Shown here piece by piece: positions 29,252 through 35,642 of a DNA stretch of 64,000 nucleotides. The stretch's first letter is position 1, and each line of letters begins with the position of its first letter. Made by a program: the position numbers and the translations under genes. The notes beneath the pieces are model-generated. The model saw only the letters and a program-made list of their open reading frames with translations, had not been told where the DNA came from and searched no databases. This DNA is from an uncultured Caulobacterales bacterium. Its GTDB lineage: Bacteria; Pseudomonadota; Alphaproteobacteria; Caulobacterales; Maricaulaceae. The stretch is from the NCBI GenBank assembly GCA_937929915.1, contig CALFUN010000019.1, positions 1 to 64,000 on the forward strand, written 5' to 3'.

Positions 29252-30835
29252 ATGTTATCCATTACTGATCTTGATTACGCTGTCCAAGGGCGTCCTTTGT
29301 TTAGAAAAGCCAATGCGCAGATCGCAGCTGGATGGAAAGTAGGCTTAATTGGGCGCAATGGGACTGGGAAATCCACCTTGCTTCGGCTTATCCGCGAGGA
29401 AATTGAAAGTCCAATGCGTGATGCCTCTATCAAACTTAATAAAAACGCACGGCTTGGCTGGGTCGCGCAAGAGGTTGATGCTTCGGATGAAACCATCATG
29501 GAAGTAGTTCTGGCCGCAGACCAAGATCGCCATCGTTTGATGAAGCAATCTGAAACGGAAACAGACCCTGACAAGCTTGGCGAGATATATGAACGCCTCA
29601 CCGATATGGATGCGTGGAATGCTGATACGCGCGCCGCTATCGTCCTTATGGGCCTTGGGTTTACACCAGATGATTTTCACCGCGCGACGAAAGAGTTTTC
29701 GGGCGGCTGGCGAATGCGCGCAGCCATTGCTGGCGTACTTGTCTCTGAACCTGATGTGCTTTTACTCGATGAACCGACCAACTATCTTGACCTTGAAGGC
29801 GCGACTTGGCTTGAAGGCTATATTCGCAAATACCCTCATACTGTCATTATGGTGAGCCATGACCGCGAACTTCTCAATCGTTCCGTGACACATACACTTG
29901 CCCTTGAGCATCAAACCCTGACGATAACGCCCGGGGGTTATGATGATTGGATGACATTGCGCGCCGCTAAAATAGCCCAGCTTACTGCGCAAAAAGCCAA
30001 ACAAGACGCAGATAAAGCCCATCTTCAAGCCTTTGTGGATCGCTTCAAAGCCAAAGCCTCCAAAGCTCGCCAAGCACAATCACGCGTAAAAATGCTTGAA
30101 AAAATGCAGGATATTGCAATTCCGATCGCAGAGCGCACTACGCCTTTTTCCTTTCCTGCCCCCAAAGGCAAGCTCGCACCGCCCATGCTGCAATTAGAAA
30201 ATGCAGAGCTAGGGTATGGCGTGGATGCAAAAATTCTATCAGGTGTCAATTTACGATTAGACCCTGATGACCGTGTGGCCATTGTCGGGGCAAATGGGCA
30301 AGGCAAAACAACTTTAGTGAAATCCATCGCCGAGCGTCTGCCGCTTATGTCTGGTGAGCGTAAAGCCCCAATGAGCCTGCGTATTGGCTATTTCTCTCAA
30401 GACCAACTTGATGAGCTTACTGCGGGCGAAACCGTATTAGATCATGTCGCGCAAAAATTAGAAAAAGGCACACCGCAGCACAAAGCCCGCGGCGCGGCGG
30501 CGCAAATGGGATTTTCTCATGAGAAGGTCGAAACCAAGGTTGAGAAATTATCAGGCGGAGAAAAAGTACGCCTTTTGCTCGGCTTAATGTCGATTGATAA
30601 ACCGCATGTCCTTATCCTTGATGAGCCGACATCGCATTTGGATATTGATAGCCGCGAAGCCCTTATCTATGCGCTCAATGATTTTCCGGGCGCAGTTTTG
30701 CTCATCACCCATGATGTTTATTTGGCCGAAGCTACAGCCGATCAATTATGGCTCGTCAATAATGGCCGCGCGAAACGCTATGATGGGGATTTACGCGATT
30801 ATAAGAAATTGGTCATGCAGGCTGATCGCGCTTAG
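29252..30835 (+). CDS. ABC-F family ATPase (Uup/YheS-like)
   Basis: About 527 residues from the ATG at MLSITDLDY; the longer frame adds 24 non-conserved residues. Two ABC cassettes are seen: Walker A GRNGTGKST with signature FSGGWRMR and Walker B LLLDEPTNYLD, then GANGQGKTT, LSGGEKVR and LILDEPTSHLD. The linker between them (about 225-300) is Lys/Gln-rich and helical, like the P-site tRNA interaction motif. There are no membrane segments, as usual for ABC-F proteins, which act on ribosomes. It is transcribed divergently from the alpha-2-macroglobulin gene. Its stop overlaps the 3' end of the convergent Gfo/Idh gene by 4 bases. Confidence 0.9.
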   Translation: MLSITDLDYAVQGRPLFRKANAQIAAGWKVGLIGRNGTGKSTLLRLIREEIESPMRDASIKLNKNARLGWVAQEVDASDETIMEVVLAADQDRHRLMKQSETETDPDKLGEIYERLTDMDAWNADTRAAIVLMGLGFTPDDFHRATKEFSGGWRMRAAIAGVLVSEPDVLLLDEPTNYLDLEGATWLEGYIRKYPHTVIMVSHDRELLNRSVTHTLALEHQTLTITPGGYDDWMTLRAAKIAQLTAQKAKQDADKAHLQAFVDRFKAKASKARQAQSRVKMLEKMQDIAIPIAERTTPFSFPAPKGKLAPPMLQLENAELGYGVDAKILSGVNLRLDPDDRVAIVGANGQGKTTLVKSIAERLPLMSGERKAPMSLRIGYFSQDQLDELTAGETVLDHVAQKLEKGTPQHKARGAAAQMGFSHEKVETKVEKLSGGEKVRLLLGLMSIDKPHVLILDEPTSHLDIDSREALIYALNDFPGAVLLITHDVYLAEATADQLWLVNNGRAKRYDGDLRDYKKLVMQADRA

Positions 30836-31917
30836 AAATGGATAACACGGTTTTCTAGCGCAGCTTGTTGCGCGGCAAGTCCCATTTTTACAGCCATTTT
30901 CCCGTCATCTGTCGTAACCTCGACTTGGCCGTGTCCCTGCACGACTTTTAAAAACTTTTCATGCTGATAAAAGGTCGAGCCATGATGATCGCCTGCCATA
31001 AGCAAATCATGATCAATCACAACATCTGTCGTCACAGGGCGTTTAGGTGTGCGCGGAGCTATGGTGATTTGAGAATTAGGCGGAGGCCCAATATCAGTTG
31101 GCCAAAATCTATGCGGGCCTGGCATACGGCACTCTATTTTCCCAGCTGGCCCAACTGCACTAATCTCTTCATTCCATAATGTCCCATCGGCAAACATACA
31201 CAGCTCTAGCATAGCCCGCGCGCCATTTTCAAAATCAAATATGACATAACCCCCGTCCCAAATATCAGGCGTTTGGCCGTTATAGACCTCATCTAGATGA
31301 TTGACGATTTGGCCCGCACTGGCGCTTACACGGATTGGATTTGACTGTGTGATAAACCGCATCAAATCGAAAAAATGGCAACATTTTTCAACAAGCGTTC
31401 CGCCTGTATTTTTATTAAAACGGTTCCAGTCACCAACTTTTGGTAAAAACGGAATACGGTGTTCCTTAATGGTTAGCATCTTCACCCCGCCCGTCACTGC
31501 ATCAGCCTGCGCCGCCATTTGCGCGATAGGCGGCATATAACGATATTCCATAGCCACCCAGATTGGGGCTGTGTGAGACTCTATCATATGCGTAAGCCGC
31601 GCCTCTTGCATTGGGTTAGTGTAGAGGGGCTTTTCACATAATATTGGCAAATTACAATGCATGGAAATCTCTTCAAGATTGTCAACATGTAGATAATTTG
31701 GGCTGACGACAACCAAAGCATCCAGCTCTGGTAGGCTCGCGAGTTCTTTGATAGAGCTGCAAATCTGCGCGCCATTAGCACGATGCGCCGCGCCTTTGGC
31801 AAGGCTGTCTATAGGGTCATAAACCGCATAAACAGCAGCACCATCCAAGAGGTTGAGATTGTTAATATGCTCAAGCCCCATCATACCACAGCCAATAATG
31901 CCGTATTTTTTTGTCAT
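30832..31917 (-). CDS. Gfo/Idh/MocA-family NAD(P)-dependent sugar enzyme
   Basis: 361 residues. The N-terminal Rossmann fold shows GIIGCGMMGLEH, and the EKP motif (CEKPLYTN) near residue 95 is diagnostic of the family. The C-terminal alpha/beta domain has NTGGTLVEKCCHFFDLMRF, the usual substrate and histidine region. Family members oxidise or rearrange sugars; GH188 members hydrolyse sulfoquinovosides using NAD+. It is divergent to the SsuD-like monooxygenase/reductase pair and lies 9 bases after the GntR regulator stop on the same strand. Together these suggest a sugar-sulfonate pathway, but the substrate is not provable here. Confidence 0.85.
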   Translation of the reverse strand: MTKKYGIIGCGMMGLEHINNLNLLDGAAVYAVYDPIDSLAKGAAHRANGAQICSSIKELASLPELDALVVVSPNYLHVDNLEEISMHCNLPILCEKPLYTNPMQEARLTHMIESHTAPIWVAMEYRYMPPIAQMAAQADAVTGGVKMLTIKEHRIPFLPKVGDWNRFNKNTGGTLVEKCCHFFDLMRFITQSNPIRVSASAGQIVNHLDEVYNGQTPDIWDGGYVIFDFENGARAMLELCMFADGTLWNEEISAVGPAGKIECRMPGPHRFWPTDIGPPPNSQITIAPRTPKRPVTTDVVIDHDLLMAGDHHGSTFYQHEKFLKVVQGHGQVEVTTDDGKMAVKMGLAAQQAALENRVIHF

Positions 31918-31926
31918 ATTTCCAAC

Positions 31927-32649
31927 CTAACGCCTATTCACGTAATGACAGATATGCGGATTGAACCACGTTTTAGAAAACTCAGCAGGATCGCCCCATT
32001 GATCCCATGCGATACGCTCAATATAGCCTGCCATATCCTTAGCGGACAGTCCAAAGTCTTTAGGCGTCCAATCCGGCATTTGCGCGCAACTGACCTTATC
32101 TTCCATCCGAGATATAATTAAGTTCAGAGAGCTTTGGTAATAGCTATATAAAGACTCGCTCATATCAAATATATTCAGATTTCTTGCAAAACGCTCATCT
32201 AGCCATATCTGCTCTAATGCACTGACTTGGCCATCTAAGTACCGCAAGCGTGTGATACAATGCGCGATTTTAGAGCCGCCAAAATGAGGCGCGTCAACGG
32301 GCTTGTTTTTTAAATCAATGCGAAGAATTTTCGCCGTTGGTAGCCCCCCGCCTTTTAACAGTTCTAACCGAAAAAGCCTGTAAATGCTTTCAACTGTGGT
32401 TTTAGCACGGATGTAATTACCTGAGCCTTGTATGCGCTCAAGCAAGCCTCTTTCTTCCAAAATCCCTAATGCCTTTCGCAGTGTCCCAATGGCAACGCCA
32501 TAATCTTGTGCCATTTGTCTTTCCGTTGGCAAGCGCGCGCCATCGGTTAAAATACCCGCCGAAATTTCGCGGATAAGGGCTTCGCTAATTTGCAAGCTTT
32601 TGGGGAGTTTTCTGGGTTGTTTCATAGATACAATAAATAATTGATACAT
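31927..32649 (-). CDS. GntR-family transcriptional regulator (HutC/UTRA type)
   Basis: 240 residues. A winged HTH comes first (SLQISEALIREISAG, RLPTERQMAQDYGV, TLRKALGILEERGLLER), then a UTRA ligand-binding domain from about residue 90 (ISRMEDKVSCAQ, YIERIAWDQWG). An ATG eight codons downstream (MKQPRKLPK) may be the true start; neither has a clear ribosome site. It is encoded divergently from the monooxygenase and co-directionally with the Gfo/Idh gene, so it probably controls both from the shared 89-bp intergenic region. UTRA regulators usually respond to small metabolites such as sugars. Confidence 0.88.
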   Translation of the reverse strand: MYQLFIVSMKQPRKLPKSLQISEALIREISAGILTDGARLPTERQMAQDYGVAIGTLRKALGILEERGLLERIQGSGNYIRAKTTVESIYRLFRLELLKGGGLPTAKILRIDLKNKPVDAPHFGGSKIAHCITRLRYLDGQVSALEQIWLDERFARNLNIFDMSESLYSYYQSSLNLIISRMEDKVSCAQMPDWTPKDFGLSAKDMAGYIERIAWDQWGDPAEFSKTWFNPHICHYVNRR

Positions 32650-32657
32650 GATTGATA
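32640..32657. promoter_or_regulatory. direct repeat ATTGATA, candidate regulator site
   Basis: ATTGATA occurs at 32640-32646 and 32651-32657, 11 bases apart (one helical turn). They lie at the GntR gene start, in the divergent region serving both operons. This would suit autoregulation, but the motif is short and AT-rich. Confidence 0.25.
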
Positions 32658-32738
32658 TAGTTAATTTGCTGTGATAGGCAAGTTATAAATTTCACCCTCC
32701 AATCATACAGCTACTCACATATCTAAAAAGTTATCCAT

Positions 32739-33896
32739 ATGAGCCTAGTCCCCATCACGTCAGAAGATCTTAAAGCGCCAGAAGTTTCATGGTTCTCCGC
32801 TTTATGCTCTGATGATTATCAGTTTTTAGGTGTCCCGCAAAATGATCTAAAATCAAGTTGGGAGCATTGCAGCAGTATTTTATTAGAAGCGGAAAAACAA
32901 GGTTTTCGGAATATCTTATGCCCGTCATCTTATCAGGTCGGGCAAGATACATTAAGCTTTGTGGCAGGCTGCGCGCCTTTGACAAAAACAATTAACATGC
33001 TTGCAGCTGTGCGCTGCGGTGAAATGCAGCCCATCATGCTCGCCCGGACATTAGCCACGCTTGACCACATGTTAAAGGGCCGCTTAACGGTGAATATCAT
33101 TAGCTCTGATTTTCCTGGCGAAAAAGCAGATAGCGCTTATCGTTATAAACGCTCGCGCGAAGTTGTGGCGATTTTAAAGCAAGCTTGGACACAAGATGTC
33201 ATCAATTTTGAAGGACAGATATATAATTTCAAAGATGTGCCAACGGCGCCGGCCAAACCATATCAACACAATGGCGGACCGCTGCTATATTTTGGCGGCT
33301 ATTCCCCGCCGGCTTTAGAGTTATGCGGGGAGCATTGCGATGTATATTTGATGTGGCCAGAGCCTAAAGCCCAAATCGCAGAGCGTATGAAAGCCGTAAA
33401 TGCTGCGGCACAAAAATTTGACCGCACATTAGATTACGGCTTTCGCGCCCACGTCATTGTCCGTGACACAGAACAAGAAGCCCGAGAATATGCAGAATAT
33501 ATTGTCAGTAAACTCGATGATGAATATGGCAAAGTCATCCGTGAGCGCGCTCATGATAGCTCTAGCCTTGGCGTGGCTCATCAAGCCCGTGCCCGCGAAC
33601 TTGCTGACAAATTTGGTTATGTTGAACGACATTTATGGACAGGCATAGGTCGTGCGCGGTCGGGCTGCGGGGCAGCCATTATAGGCTCTACAGATCAAGT
33701 CATGTCCGAAATCGAATCTTATATGAAACTCGGCATTCGATCGTTTATTTTTTCTGGCTACCCGCATGTAGATGAATGTCGACATTTCGGGTCTCGGGTT
33801 TTAAAGGACCTTAAAACCTCGTCTTTGCCGCATATTTATGGCCGTGTGCCCGCAGAGACGCCCGATACACCCTTAGCCAATGGAAACAGAATATAA
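32739..33896 (+). CDS. SsuD-like FMNH2-dependent monooxygenase (bacterial luciferase family)
   Basis: 385 residues with the SsuD/SfnG-type luciferase-like barrel. Diagnostic segments are LAAVRCGEMQPIMLARTLATLDH, GRLTVNIISSDFPGEKADS, LLYFGGYSPPALELC, RAHVIVRDTEQEA, LWTGIGRARSGCGAAIIGS and FIFSGYPHVDECR. Such enzymes use FMNH2 and O2 to cleave C-S bonds of sulfonates; SmoC does this on sulfoquinovose. The gene overlaps the next by 1 base (TAATG), so its product and the aldo/keto reductase are made together. No flavin reductase is encoded nearby; it would have to be supplied from elsewhere. Confidence 0.88.
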   Translation: MSLVPITSEDLKAPEVSWFSALCSDDYQFLGVPQNDLKSSWEHCSSILLEAEKQGFRNILCPSSYQVGQDTLSFVAGCAPLTKTINMLAAVRCGEMQPIMLARTLATLDHMLKGRLTVNIISSDFPGEKADSAYRYKRSREVVAILKQAWTQDVINFEGQIYNFKDVPTAPAKPYQHNGGPLLYFGGYSPPALELCGEHCDVYLMWPEPKAQIAERMKAVNAAAQKFDRTLDYGFRAHVIVRDTEQEAREYAEYIVSKLDDEYGKVIRERAHDSSSLGVAHQARARELADKFGYVERHLWTGIGRARSGCGAAIIGSTDQVMSEIESYMKLGIRSFIFSGYPHVDECRHFGSRVLKDLKTSSLPHIYGRVPAETPDTPLANGNRI

Positions 33897-34789
33897 TGCT
33901 CCGTATAGACCTTGCTCCAACTTTAAATATTTCTCGCCTTGTTTACGGTATGTGGCGGCTGGGCGACGATAACGATACATCACCGTCCCATGTTCAGGCT
34001 AAAATAGAAGCTTGTCTGGAGCAAGGCATCACGACCTTAGACCAAGCCGATATTTATGGCGGTTATGAAGCAGAAGACATTTTAGGTAAGAGTTTTAAGG
34101 CCGCCCCTCACCTCAAAGATAAAGTCGAGATTATCACCAAATGCGGTATCATTGCACCTACGGGCCGTCATGCCGATAAGCGCGTTAAACATTATGATAC
34201 ATCACGCCAGCATATCACAGCTTCCGTCGAAGCCTCTTTGAGATTGATGAATATAGAGCAAATCGACCTTTTGCTCATTCACCGTCCTGACCCATTTATA
34301 GATCATAACGAAACAGGTGCATGTTTAGACGACTTGATTTCATCGGGTAAAATCAAAGCGGCAGGTGTGTCTAACTTTAAACCTTACGACATGACTTTAC
34401 TAGCCTCTGCCATGTCAAGCCCATTAGTGACCAATCAAATCGAGATGAGCCTGACATCCAATGAGAGTTTTATCAATGGCGACATTGCGTTCTTACAAGA
34501 AAACAAGATTGCCCCAATGGCGTGGTCACCTTTGGGCGGTGGATCCATATTTAGCGATAAAAACTCAGCTTTGATGCAGCGTATTTCACAACTCGCCAGT
34601 GCAAATAATGTCGATGAAGCTGCGGTTTGTGTGGCTTGGTTGCTCGCACATCCCGCTAATATCATTCCAGTATTAGGGACAAATTCTCTTGCGCGCATTC
34701 AAACCATTTCAAAGGCTTTAGACATCACCATAGACCGCCAAACTTGGTTCGAGCTTTACAATACAGCCAATGGATATGATGTCCCTTAA
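33896..34789 (+). CDS. aldo/keto reductase
   Basis: 297 residues of an NAD(P)H-dependent (beta/alpha)8 barrel. The tetrad is visible: Asp and Tyr in TLDQADIYGGYEAE, Lys in IITKCG, His in LLIHRPDP. Conserved GVSNF, NQIEMS and MAWSPLGGG follow. It resembles the YdhF type (SRLVYGMWRL). Translation is coupled to the monooxygenase. In the sulfo-SMO pathway an aldo/keto reductase (SmoB) reduces the 6-oxo-glucose made by the monooxygenase; that role is proposed from neighbourhood only. Confidence 0.88.
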   Translation: MLRIDLAPTLNISRLVYGMWRLGDDNDTSPSHVQAKIEACLEQGITTLDQADIYGGYEAEDILGKSFKAAPHLKDKVEIITKCGIIAPTGRHADKRVKHYDTSRQHITASVEASLRLMNIEQIDLLLIHRPDPFIDHNETGACLDDLISSGKIKAAGVSNFKPYDMTLLASAMSSPLVTNQIEMSLTSNESFINGDIAFLQENKIAPMAWSPLGGGSIFSDKNSALMQRISQLASANNVDEAAVCVAWLLAHPANIIPVLGTNSLARIQTISKALDITIDRQTWFELYNTANGYDVP

Positions 34790-34835
34790 GACGCATTTGG
34801 CTTGCTTTGCACAGCAGGCCTTATAAACTGTGTTT

Positions 34836-35642
34836 ATGGCTGATTTATCAAACCTTATTGCGCATCGTTTTCGAGGGTTTACAACTTATGAAAACTCCCT
34901 TGAAGGCCTGCATGCTGCGTTAGATTTCGGTGTCAAACAAATTGAATTTGATATTCGGGTTACAAAATGCGGTACACCGCTTATCTATCACGACGAATAT
35001 GCACTGGATAAGAACGGAAATTTACATCACCTCAAAGACGTTAAAGCCAGTGCGTTAAAAACGCTAGGCGGTGTATTTTCGCATATGCCAAGCGCTGAAG
35101 CGCTTTTCGCGGCTATCGCGGCCCATGCCAATCAAGATGTAAAAATTCTGATTGATATGAAAGATGCAGGCTTTGAAGATATGCTCTATGCGCTCGTGCG
35201 GGCTAATCACCTTGAAGACCGCGCTCTATGGGTGTCATGGTTGCCTGAAACACTCTACGCCATTCATGATCTTGACCCAAAGGCCAAGCTTTGCCTGTCT
35301 CATTGGTGCGCGGAGCCAACGGATAAAGATAAGCGTATCCATCAGGTCTTCACAGCGCAAGATGGTCACATTGCGCGCCCAAAGCGCAGATATGTGCATG
35401 GTGAGCGATCAGGCTGGCACGTCAGCGGCGGGGTGCAAGGTGACCTGCGACAAATTTTAACGTCTGTGTGCATACCGCAGGCTATGGCGACACGCGCGCT
35501 TGTTGATGATTATCATAAAGATAACATCGCCGTTTCAGCCTTCTCCTATGTTGAGTGGGCGCATATAAATCGTCATCAAAGCGAGTTTAACATCGATGAC
35601 TATTTCATTGATAGTCAATCTGTTTTTAATGAAATCACTTAA
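34836..35642 (+). CDS. glycerophosphodiester phosphodiesterase family protein
   Basis: 268 residues from the ATG (the frame opens six bases earlier at GTG). GDPD motifs are present: AHRFRG with catalytic His and Arg, [21 protein letters not shown] with the metal-binding acid and second His, and ILIDMKD. No signal peptide is seen, so it acts in the cytosol. It would release glycerol-3-phosphate from deacylated phospholipids. It follows the aldo/keto reductase by about 45 bases and may be co-transcribed. Its stop overlaps that of the convergent yacG by 4 bases. Confidence 0.85.

What the first reader, a model, noticed from the sequence alone, without database searches (positions are those of the whole stretch)
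30832..35642. Possible sulfoquinovose (sulfo-SMO-type) catabolic locus using a Gfo/Idh-type glycosidase
Seen: SsuD-like monooxygenase coupled to an aldo/keto reductase, divergent from a GntR/UTRA regulator and a Gfo/Idh/MocA protein. Known: in the sulfo-SMO pathway SmoC (SsuD-like) cleaves the C-S bond of sulfoquinovose and SmoB (aldo/keto reductase) reduces the product; GH188 sulfoquinovosidases are NAD+-dependent Gfo/Idh-fold enzymes. Inference: this gene set could release and desulfurise sulfoquinovose from plant or algal sulfolipid; the glycerophosphodiesterase fits lipid scavenging. No flavin reductase or transporter is in the window.
Basis: partly seen in the sequence, partly recalled or inferred. 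Interest (0 to 1): 0.6.

Follow-up and report, generated by a model that had tools for sequence, protein, structure and literature searches.

The report
Sulfoquinovose-degrading gene cluster, oxygen-dependent type

Summary
Observation confirmed, reading largely right. Genes 30832-34789 form a sulfo-SMO cluster with a GH188-type sulfoquinovosidase. The monooxygenase is closest to 7oh2/7olf, titled as sulfoquinovose-desulfurizing monooxygenases (75/70% identity; SsuD and MsuD near 30%). The aldo/keto reductase is closest to 7bby/7bbz/7bc1 (61-65%). The Gfo/Idh protein is 48% identical to SqgA 8qc2 and keeps eight of nine published active-site residues at the expected offset (the ninth maps one residue off, onto a conserved Glu). 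The divergent order GH188-GntR / SmoC-SmoB recurs in 71 of 77 testable relatives; a conserved block lies upstream of smoC in 79 of 82 regions. Corrections: the glycerophosphodiesterase is a genus core gene, not part of the set; the regulator probably starts 24 bp downstream. No PF01613 flavin reductase was found in the 91.7%-complete genome, so the FMNH2 source is unknown. In the window's family, 12 of 12 genomes with GH188 but no SmoC have a TauD-type dioxygenase next to or within 1.3 kb of it, and two SmoC genomes without detected SmoB hold the dioxygenase clusters' reductase. That suggests interchangeable modules, the most novel part. Overall: a new member of a known kind.

The parts
30832..31917 (-). 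sqgA-like gene: GH188-type NAD+-dependent sulfoquinovosidase (Gfo/Idh fold), 361 aa
   Evidence: 8zn9 470 bits, SqgA 8qc2/8qc3 347/345 bits, inositol dehydrogenase 61 bits; K96, Y125, R154, L158, K160, E177, H181, H311 match listed SqgA residues; E152 lies one position from the listed Glu163
31927..32625 (-). GntR/UTRA regulator; start revised from 32649 to 32625
   Evidence: PF00392, PF07702; the conserved upstream block covers the ATG at 32649. The start revision is inference
32639..32656 (+). Conserved upstream box AATTGATACATGATTGAT (consensus AATTGATACACTATTGAT), candidate regulator operator
   Evidence: 2 mismatches in the window and its only site with up to 4 mismatches in the 64 kb; 79 of 82 upstream regions have 3 or fewer; 1640 single-base shuffles never had fewer than 5
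32652..32682 (+). Candidate smoC promoter: TTGATA, 17-base spacer, TAGGCAAG
   Evidence: TTGATN-N17-TA in 77 of 79 regions, GCAAG in 71 of 79. The promoter role is inferred from spacing only
32739..33896 (+). smoC: FMNH2-dependent sulfoquinovose monooxygenase, 385 aa
   Evidence: 7oh2 75% and 7olf 70% identity; tree apart from SsuD/SfnG
33896..34789 (+). smoB: NADPH-dependent aldo/keto reductase (6-dehydroglucose to glucose), 297 aa
   Evidence: 7bby/7bbz/7bc1 (Agrobacterium; 7bc1 with NADPH and glucose) 61-65% identity, next group (E. coli YdhF type) 38-39%

Best explanation
The locus is a sulfo-SMO sulfoquinovose (SQ) catabolic cluster with a GH188-type sulfoquinovosidase as its entry enzyme. 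Imported SQ glycosides such as SQ-glycerol are cleaved by the GH188 enzyme, using NAD+ transiently to oxidise C3. SmoC, with FMNH2 and O2, cleaves the C-S bond of SQ to sulfite and 6-dehydroglucose. SmoB reduces 6-dehydroglucose to glucose with NADPH. The GntR/UTRA protein binds the conserved block between the two transcripts and probably represses them until an SQ-related effector binds. FMNH2 comes from an unidentified reductase encoded elsewhere, and uptake is by an unlinked transporter. Shown here: gene order, orthology, kept GH188 residues, conserved upstream block, no PF01613 match in the assembly. Inferred: all enzyme activities, the regulator's site and direction, flux to glucose.
For: Nearest solved relatives of the monooxygenase and the reductase are SQ-pathway enzymes by sequence and by structure comparison with entry titles (that the reductase entries are SmoB is recalled, the titles say Agrobacterium aldo-keto reductase, one with NADPH and glucose). 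GH188-type orthology and active-site residues. Tree placement. Same four-gene divergent order in 71 of 77 loci, and a flavin reductase gene after smoB in 66 of 70 with 6 kb downstream. Annotated Ruegeria plasmid copy: Gfo/Idh, GntR / LLM, AKR, flavin reductase, TRAP transporter. Kaur et al. 2023 (PMC10755693, parts 1-3 of 4 read) report near-universal GH188 in sulfo-SMO clusters of marine Roseobacter bacteria. Conserved upstream block in 79 of 82 regions.
Against: No PF01613 flavin reductase in G000, although the control rings in 13 of 14 genomes; the assembly is 91.7% complete, so a missed gene is possible. The one PF03358 protein (G000:C7:229503) looks like an azo/chromate reductase, not SsuE/MsuE. 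The two PF06808 (TRAP) matches of G000 lie on another contig, and its SSS proteins are at most 38% identical to the SMO-linked one. SmoC was found in only 5 of 137 family genomes at E 1e-100. Nothing was assayed.
Confidence: 0.9

Rival explanations
1. The monooxygenase is an SsuD/MsuD-type alkanesulfonate or methanesulfonate enzyme for sulfur supply, the reductase removes the resulting aldehyde, and the Gfo/Idh protein is an ordinary sugar or inositol dehydrogenase.
For: Same LLM superfamily; TIGR03565 (SsuD) is the best NCBIfam model; one PDB chain of the SQ enzyme is itself named methanesulfonate sulfonatase.
Against: SsuD score 221 against a cut-off of 518; 75/70% identity to the SQ monooxygenases against about 30% to MsuD and E. 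coli SsuD; tree; the GH188 and SmoB neighbours also point to SQ by orthology.
Confidence: 0.04
2. The genes work on SQ, but mainly to obtain sulfur (sulfite) when sulfur is scarce, not to grow on the carbon.
For: No importer seen in the cluster; PF03601 (next to GH188 in G046) had no match in G000 (PF01925 was not searched); two relatives have SmoC without a detected SmoB.
Against: SmoB, which makes the carbon usable, is kept and overlaps smoC in the window; a GntR/UTRA regulator with a conserved upstream site is kept; sulfate is plentiful in seawater (general knowledge; the window's habitat is not known).
Confidence: 0.15
3. The cluster is a partly decayed remnant: without its flavin reductase and transporter it no longer works.
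For: PF01613 was found in none of G000, G046, G047 and G002, and the cluster lacks the TRAP genes found in 45 of 70 relatives with 6 kb downstream.
Against: All four ORFs are intact and the GH188 residues and upstream block are kept. The single-contig, 99% complete G046 also lacks PF01613 yet keeps the cluster with an SSS symporter and a PF03601 gene. Clusters without their own reductase are known, e.g. N. aromaticivorans (PMC9594981 passages).
Confidence: 0.06

Closest known systems
Sulfo-SMO clusters with GH188 of Roseobacter-clade bacteria (Kaur et al. 2023, PMC10755693; compared here with Ruegeria sp. AD91A NZ_CP031947.1)
   Same: GH188-type gene and GntR divergent from smoC-smoB; 57% (GH188) and 79% (SmoC) identity to Ruegeria sp. 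AD91A; same upstream block in Roseobacter loci.
   Different: The window lacks the flavin reductase gene and the TRAP transporter genes that follow smoB there.
Agrobacterium/Rhizobium sulfo-SMO pathway (structures 7oh2, 7olf, 7bby/7bbz/7bc1)
   Same: SmoC 70-75%, SmoB 61-65% identity to the solved enzymes.
   Different: That the Agrobacterium cluster uses a GH31 glycosidase and an ABC importer is recalled, not checked here. The window has a GH188-type enzyme and no linked importer found.
GH188 SqgA of Flavobacterium and Arthrobacter (8qc2, 8qc3)
   Same: 48% identity to 8qc2; eight of nine published residues at one constant offset, the ninth one residue off.
   Different: The Arthrobacter enzyme was found in a sulfo-EMP cluster (PMC10755693); here the partner is SmoC.
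Sulfo-SDO pathway (Fe/2-oxoglutarate SQ dioxygenase SqoD)
   Same: In 12 of 12 family genomes with GH188 but no SmoC, a TauD-family gene lies next to or within 1.3 kb of GH188.
   Different: Not in the window's cluster. No SqoD sequence was at hand, so identity of these dioxygenases with SqoD is untested. PMC13372026 describes sulfo-SDO as characteristic of Gammaproteobacteria (passage); PMC10755693 reports GH188 in sulfo-SDO clusters.

Membership tests
sulfo-SMO (sulfo-ASMO) SQ pathway | SQ monooxygenase SmoC/SquD ortholog | tested here: met
   7oh2/7olf 75/70% identity, Z 48.3/47.6 against 38.6 for the next; tree
sulfo-SMO (sulfo-ASMO) SQ pathway | 6-dehydroglucose reductase SmoB/SquF clustered with SmoC (PMC13372026 designates genomes with both SmoB and SmoC as sulfo-SMO-positive) | tested here: met
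   7bby/7bbz/7bc1 61-65% identity; shares base 33896 with smoC
sulfo-SMO (sulfo-ASMO) SQ pathway | Usual but not required: flavin reductase SmoA (PF01613) in the cluster | tested here: not met
   No PF01613 in G000, control 13 of 14. Exceptions are described (PMC9594981), so membership is not withdrawn
sulfo-SMO (sulfo-ASMO) SQ pathway | Sulfite and glucose formed from SQ | not testable with these tools
   Needs enzyme assay or growth test
GH188 sulfoquinovosidase | Closer to SqgA than to other Gfo/Idh dehydrogenases | tested here: met
   347/345 bits to SqgA against 61 bits to inositol dehydrogenase. CAZy's own model was not available
GH188 sulfoquinovosidase | Sulfonate site R166, L170, K172 and catalytic K107, Y136, E189, H193, H321 of SqgA | tested here: met
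   All eight match and are identical in 33 of 33 aligned GH188-type rows
GH188 sulfoquinovosidase | Glu163 of ArSqgA | tested here: inconclusive
   At the same offset position 163 is V in the solved chain and K in the window; the next position (164) is E in both and in 33 of 33 rows; probably a numbering difference
GH188 sulfoquinovosidase | Hydrolysis of SQ glycosides with NAD+ | not testable with these tools
   Needs assay
SsuD alkanesulfonate monooxygenase (TIGR03565) | NCBIfam cut-off 518.2 bits | tested here: not met
   221.1 bits
SfnG dimethylsulfone monooxygenase (TIGR04021) | NCBIfam cut-off 382.95 bits | tested here: not met
   143.4 bits
Inositol 2-dehydrogenase IolG (TIGR04380) | NCBIfam cut-off 355 bits | tested here: not met
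   105.5 bits
sulfo-SDO pathway | TauD-family dioxygenase next to the GH188 gene | tested here: not met
   In the window GH188 is flanked by the ABC-F and GntR genes, then smoC. Whether a TauD-family gene lies elsewhere in G000 was not searched

The most novel reading that the evidence does not exclude
Within one alphaproteobacterial family, SQ use is assembled from interchangeable modules around a GH188-type enzyme. C-S cleavage is done either by flavin-dependent SmoC or by a TauD-type dioxygenase, and the aldehyde is reduced either by SmoB or by a second reductase (AKR2). Hybrids exist. Genus g9 pairs an SMO-type GH188 with the dioxygenase and AKR2. The Hellea MAG G047 (65% complete) and G002 pair GH188 and SmoC with AKR2, with no SmoB or PF01613 match and without a GntR gene or the upstream block at the locus; G047 keeps AKR2 in a stretch colinear with a congener's GH188-dioxygenase locus, minus that pair. 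SmoC in the PF01613-less genomes runs on another FMNH2 source.
Probability: 0.5. Interest if true: 0.55.

Novelty: new member of a known kind. Interest (0 to 1): 0.4.

Why it matters
[quoted passage not shown] This places a glycosidase-to-glucose core in a lineage (relatives of Hellea and Robiginitomaculum; one member of Robiginitomaculaceae, Algimonas porphyrae, came from a red alga according to the abstract start seen) for which I found no SQ report in the held library. It also offers a conserved upstream block as a search handle, and a natural set of relatives in which monooxygenase and dioxygenase versions of the same pathway can be compared. The missing PF01613 reductase in a single-contig relative genome makes 'which reductase feeds SmoC' a concrete question.

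Tried and rejected
GDPD as a lipid-scavenging part: rejected, 0 of 80 SmoC loci (tblastn E 1e-15) and 17 of 18 genus genomes. Empty-site test with the neighbouring ABC-F gene: ten congener stretches fetched, several short or with little upstream sequence; none of the ten other window genes tested was found in them (E 1e-8), so no gain/loss inference. PF03358 as FMNH2 source: the single hit resembles azo/chromate reductases; unproven either way. The PF06808 (TRAP) proteins in G000 lie on another contig; their substrate was not studied. SSS proteins of G000 are at most 38% identical to the SMO-linked symporter. No inverted repeat passed my filter in the window's intergenic piece. The GH188 tree does not settle whether the SMO-linked GH188 of the family form one clade without g9 (AU p 0.22), while a single clade of the ten dioxygenase-linked GH188 in the tree is rejected at p 0.017; that group was named after seeing the data. 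Structure prediction was done for SmoC and SmoB only; the SmoC model has weak loops (residues 23-28, 30-37, 65-67, 266-294).
Full report
OBSERVATION. smoC ends and smoB begins at base 33896. The window is contig C19:1-64000 of an unnamed 2.49 Mb genome (G000) in 39 contigs, 91.7% complete, whose only PF00296 (luciferase-family) match at E 0.001 is the one in the locus.

IDENTITY OF THE MONOOXYGENASE. By sequence the best solved chains are 7oh2 (698 bits) and 7olf (676 bits), and the next is 7jv3 (183 bits). A model built from 18 rows (mean pLDDT 78.8) aligns best to the same two entries (Z 48.3 and 47.6; 75 and 70% identity), whose titles name oxidative desulfurization of sulfoquinovose; MsuD and E. 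coli SsuD follow at Z 36 to 39 and about 30% identity. NCBIfam SsuD and SfnG cut-offs are missed by a wide margin, though SsuD is the best-scoring model. In a 38-row tree the window protein sits inside the group of 30 SmoC-locus proteins (support 94/92), apart from three SsuD and two SfnG rows, and inside a starred set of four with G046, the Hellea MAG (L003) and an uncultured Caulobacterales MAG (L002) (99/98). Some outgroup branches are very long, so deep order is unsure. Among 625 plasmid records with a match at E 1e-20, 11 are 60-80% identical and 614 below 60%; of the 60 rows listed as a spread, those annotated ssuD are at 29 to 35% identity.

IDENTITY OF THE REDUCTASE AND THE GFO/IDH PROTEIN. 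The reductase is nearest to 7bby/7bbz (431 bits; next 232). Its model (pLDDT 89.1) matches 7bbz, 7bc1 (ternary complex with NADPH and glucose) and 7bby at 61-65% identity, with E. coli YdhF types at 38-39%. That these entries are SmoB is recalled; the titles give Agrobacterium aldo-keto reductase. The Gfo/Idh protein matches 8zn9 (470 bits; its function I did not establish) and SqgA 8qc2/8qc3 (347 and 345 bits) against 61 bits for inositol dehydrogenase. PMC10755693 names 8QC2/8QC8 as FlSqgA and 8QC3/8QC5/8QC6 as ArSqgA. It lists nine ArSqgA residues. On the alignment eight map with one constant offset: K107, Y136, R166, L170, K172, E189, H193 and H321 are kept as K96, Y125, R154, L158, K160, E177, H181 and H311 (the ArSqgA alignment shows the same). 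The ninth, Glu163, falls on V in the solved chain and K in the window; the next position is E in both. These eight and that E are identical in 33 of 33 aligned GH188-type rows.

CONSERVED ARCHITECTURE. Of 77 loci with enough flank, 71 have GH188 and GntR divergent from SmoC and SmoB; the six exceptions are L002, L003, L004, L019, L029 and L053. Of 70 loci with at least 6 kb downstream, 66 have a PF01613-type flavin reductase after SmoB and 45 have a TRAP gene in the stretch (families of example proteins). Four loci with over 4 kb downstream have no SmoA-like hit: L002, L003, L017 and L053. A Ruegeria plasmid shows the full set with annotation.

UPSTREAM BLOCK. Comparing 82 regions upstream of SmoC (window, 80 loci, G046) shows AATTGATACACTATTGAT with at most 3 mismatches in 79; 1640 single-base shuffles of the regions never had fewer than 5. 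The consensus was read from some of the same regions, and shuffles keep neither dinucleotides nor relatedness. The window has it at 32639-32656 with 2 mismatches, its only site with up to 4 in 64 kb. TTGATN-N17-TA is present in 77 of the 79, and GCAAG in 71. The three regions without the block are L002 and L003, which also show no GntR hit, and L017. I infer an operator overlapping the smoC promoter, and a regulator start at 32625.

WHAT IS MISSING. PF01613 had no match in G000, in the single-contig G046, in G047 (65% complete) or in G002; G101 has two, one just after smoB, and the Henriciella MAG genome G137 has one, on another contig than its SmoC. Literature already notes clusters without their own reductase (PMC9594981 passages). 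The single PF03358 protein of G000 resembles azo/chromate reductases. In G046 the cluster is SSS symporter-SmoB-SmoC divergent from GntR-GH188-PF03601 protein, with a TonB-dependent receptor, a beta-lactamase-family protein and an alpha/beta hydrolase beyond it and a sugar transporter on the other side. The Henriciella MAG has the same symporter (72% identical) right after SmoC, and its SmoB on another contig. The best copy of that symporter in G000 is 38% identical. PF03601 had no match in G000.

GDPD. 17 of 18 genus genomes have a homolog, 52-59% identical in the congeners, although only 3 of the 18 carry SmoC. It is a core neighbour, not part of the set.

WIDER FAMILY. SmoC was found in 5 of 137 family genomes at E 1e-100 and GH188 at E up to 1e-60 in 16. 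G101, whose SmoC contig is only 3.3 kb, has SmoC but no GH188 hit. The 12 genomes with GH188 and no SmoC are G014, G019, G032, G035, G038, G040, G045, G057, G059, G100, G102 and G103. In 12 of 12 a TauD-family gene (60-77% identical to the G032 copy, or that copy itself) lies next to GH188 or, in G102, about 1.3 kb away (Pfam of the G032 copy). An AKR2-type reductase lies nearby in 9 of those 12 (not seen in the stretches of G100, G102, G103; G040 has a fragment at its contig end). Full-length AKR2 copies are 29 to 33% identical to SmoB. G002 and G047, which have SmoC but no SmoB match, carry AKR2 (54 and 61% to the G032 copy), whereas G000, G046 and G101 gave only their SmoB match at E 1e-30. 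In G047, AKR2 sits in a stretch colinear with the G059 locus but without the GH188-TauD pair. In the GH188 tree the four g9 proteins group with the four SMO-linked family proteins and the Henriciella one (100/99 for nine rows), apart from the six other dioxygenase-linked ones (100/100); one clade of all ten dioxygenase-linked rows is rejected at p 0.017. G019 and G102 were not in the tree. This suggests module exchange; the dioxygenases' activity is not shown.

TAXONOMY. G047, G002 and G101 share contig lengths with L003 (Hellea sp. MAG), L002 (uncultured Caulobacterales) and L010 (Robiginitomaculum MAG); G047 has the window's genus code. So the window belongs to the genus of that Hellea MAG; this is inference.

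LITERATURE. PMC10755693: parts 1-3 of 4 read. PMC11465081: part 1 of 2 read. PMC13372026, PMC12890257 and PMC9594981: passages only. Searches joining sulfoquinovose with Hyphomonadaceae gave 0 papers; with Caulobacterales, 1 deep-sea sediment survey, seen as a listing only; and in the joint search with Maricaulales, Robiginitomaculum, Hellea and Henriciella, none of the 13 listed papers held the word sulfoquinovose. The library lacks most subscription papers and also the sulfo-SMO, Roseobacter and SqoD originals I asked for. PMC13372026 already reports sulfo-SMO clusters well outside Roseobacter and rhizobia (Actinomycetota, Spirochaetota), so a new host lineage is a modest novelty.

VERDICT. 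A well-preserved core of a known pathway in a lineage without a found report, with an interesting family-wide pattern of swapped parts.

Noticed in passing
L184, L189-L199 (G014, G019, G032, G035, G038, G040, G045, G057, G059, G100, G102, G103): GH188-type gene next to or near a TauD-family dioxygenase gene, in 9 of 12 with an AKR2 reductase: candidate sulfo-SDO clusters in Alphaproteobacteria, in 12 of 12 family genomes with GH188 but no SmoC.
   Followed up: partly
L103:2034-4264 (G047) against L192:7144-11345 (G059): Colinear loci; G047 keeps the GST-like and AKR2 genes but lacks the GH188-TauD pair, while its GH188-SmoC pair lies on another contig.
   Followed up: partly
L090:16015-17118 and L053:2350-3420: Alpha/beta hydrolases, 43% identical, near both symporter-bearing clusters; their N-terminal ends look like lipoprotein signals by eye. 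Candidate sulfolipase that strips SQDG, untested.
   Followed up: partly
L090:5330-6952 and L053:11320-13026: SSS symporter (the G046 copy is over the NCBIfam PRK10484 cut-off) next to SmoB or SmoC in two lineages: candidate SQ or SQ-glycerol importer.
   Followed up: partly
L125:6489-9563 (Emticicia oligotrophica plasmid): A SmoC-like monooxygenase (52% identity) directly followed by a sodium/solute symporter in a Bacteroidota plasmid.
   Followed up: no
L017: Relative with the four genes but no SmoA-like hit and a poor upstream block (5 mismatches).
   Followed up: no
window:23039-29110: A 2023-aa ORF on the minus strand, by recall like a bacterial alpha-2-macroglobulin; no family search was run.
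   Followed up: no
L200:1235-6678 (G000:C7): Large outer-membrane-receptor-like ORF (by eye) and an SSS symporter close together elsewhere in the window's genome, a possible uptake locus of unknown substrate.
   Followed up: no
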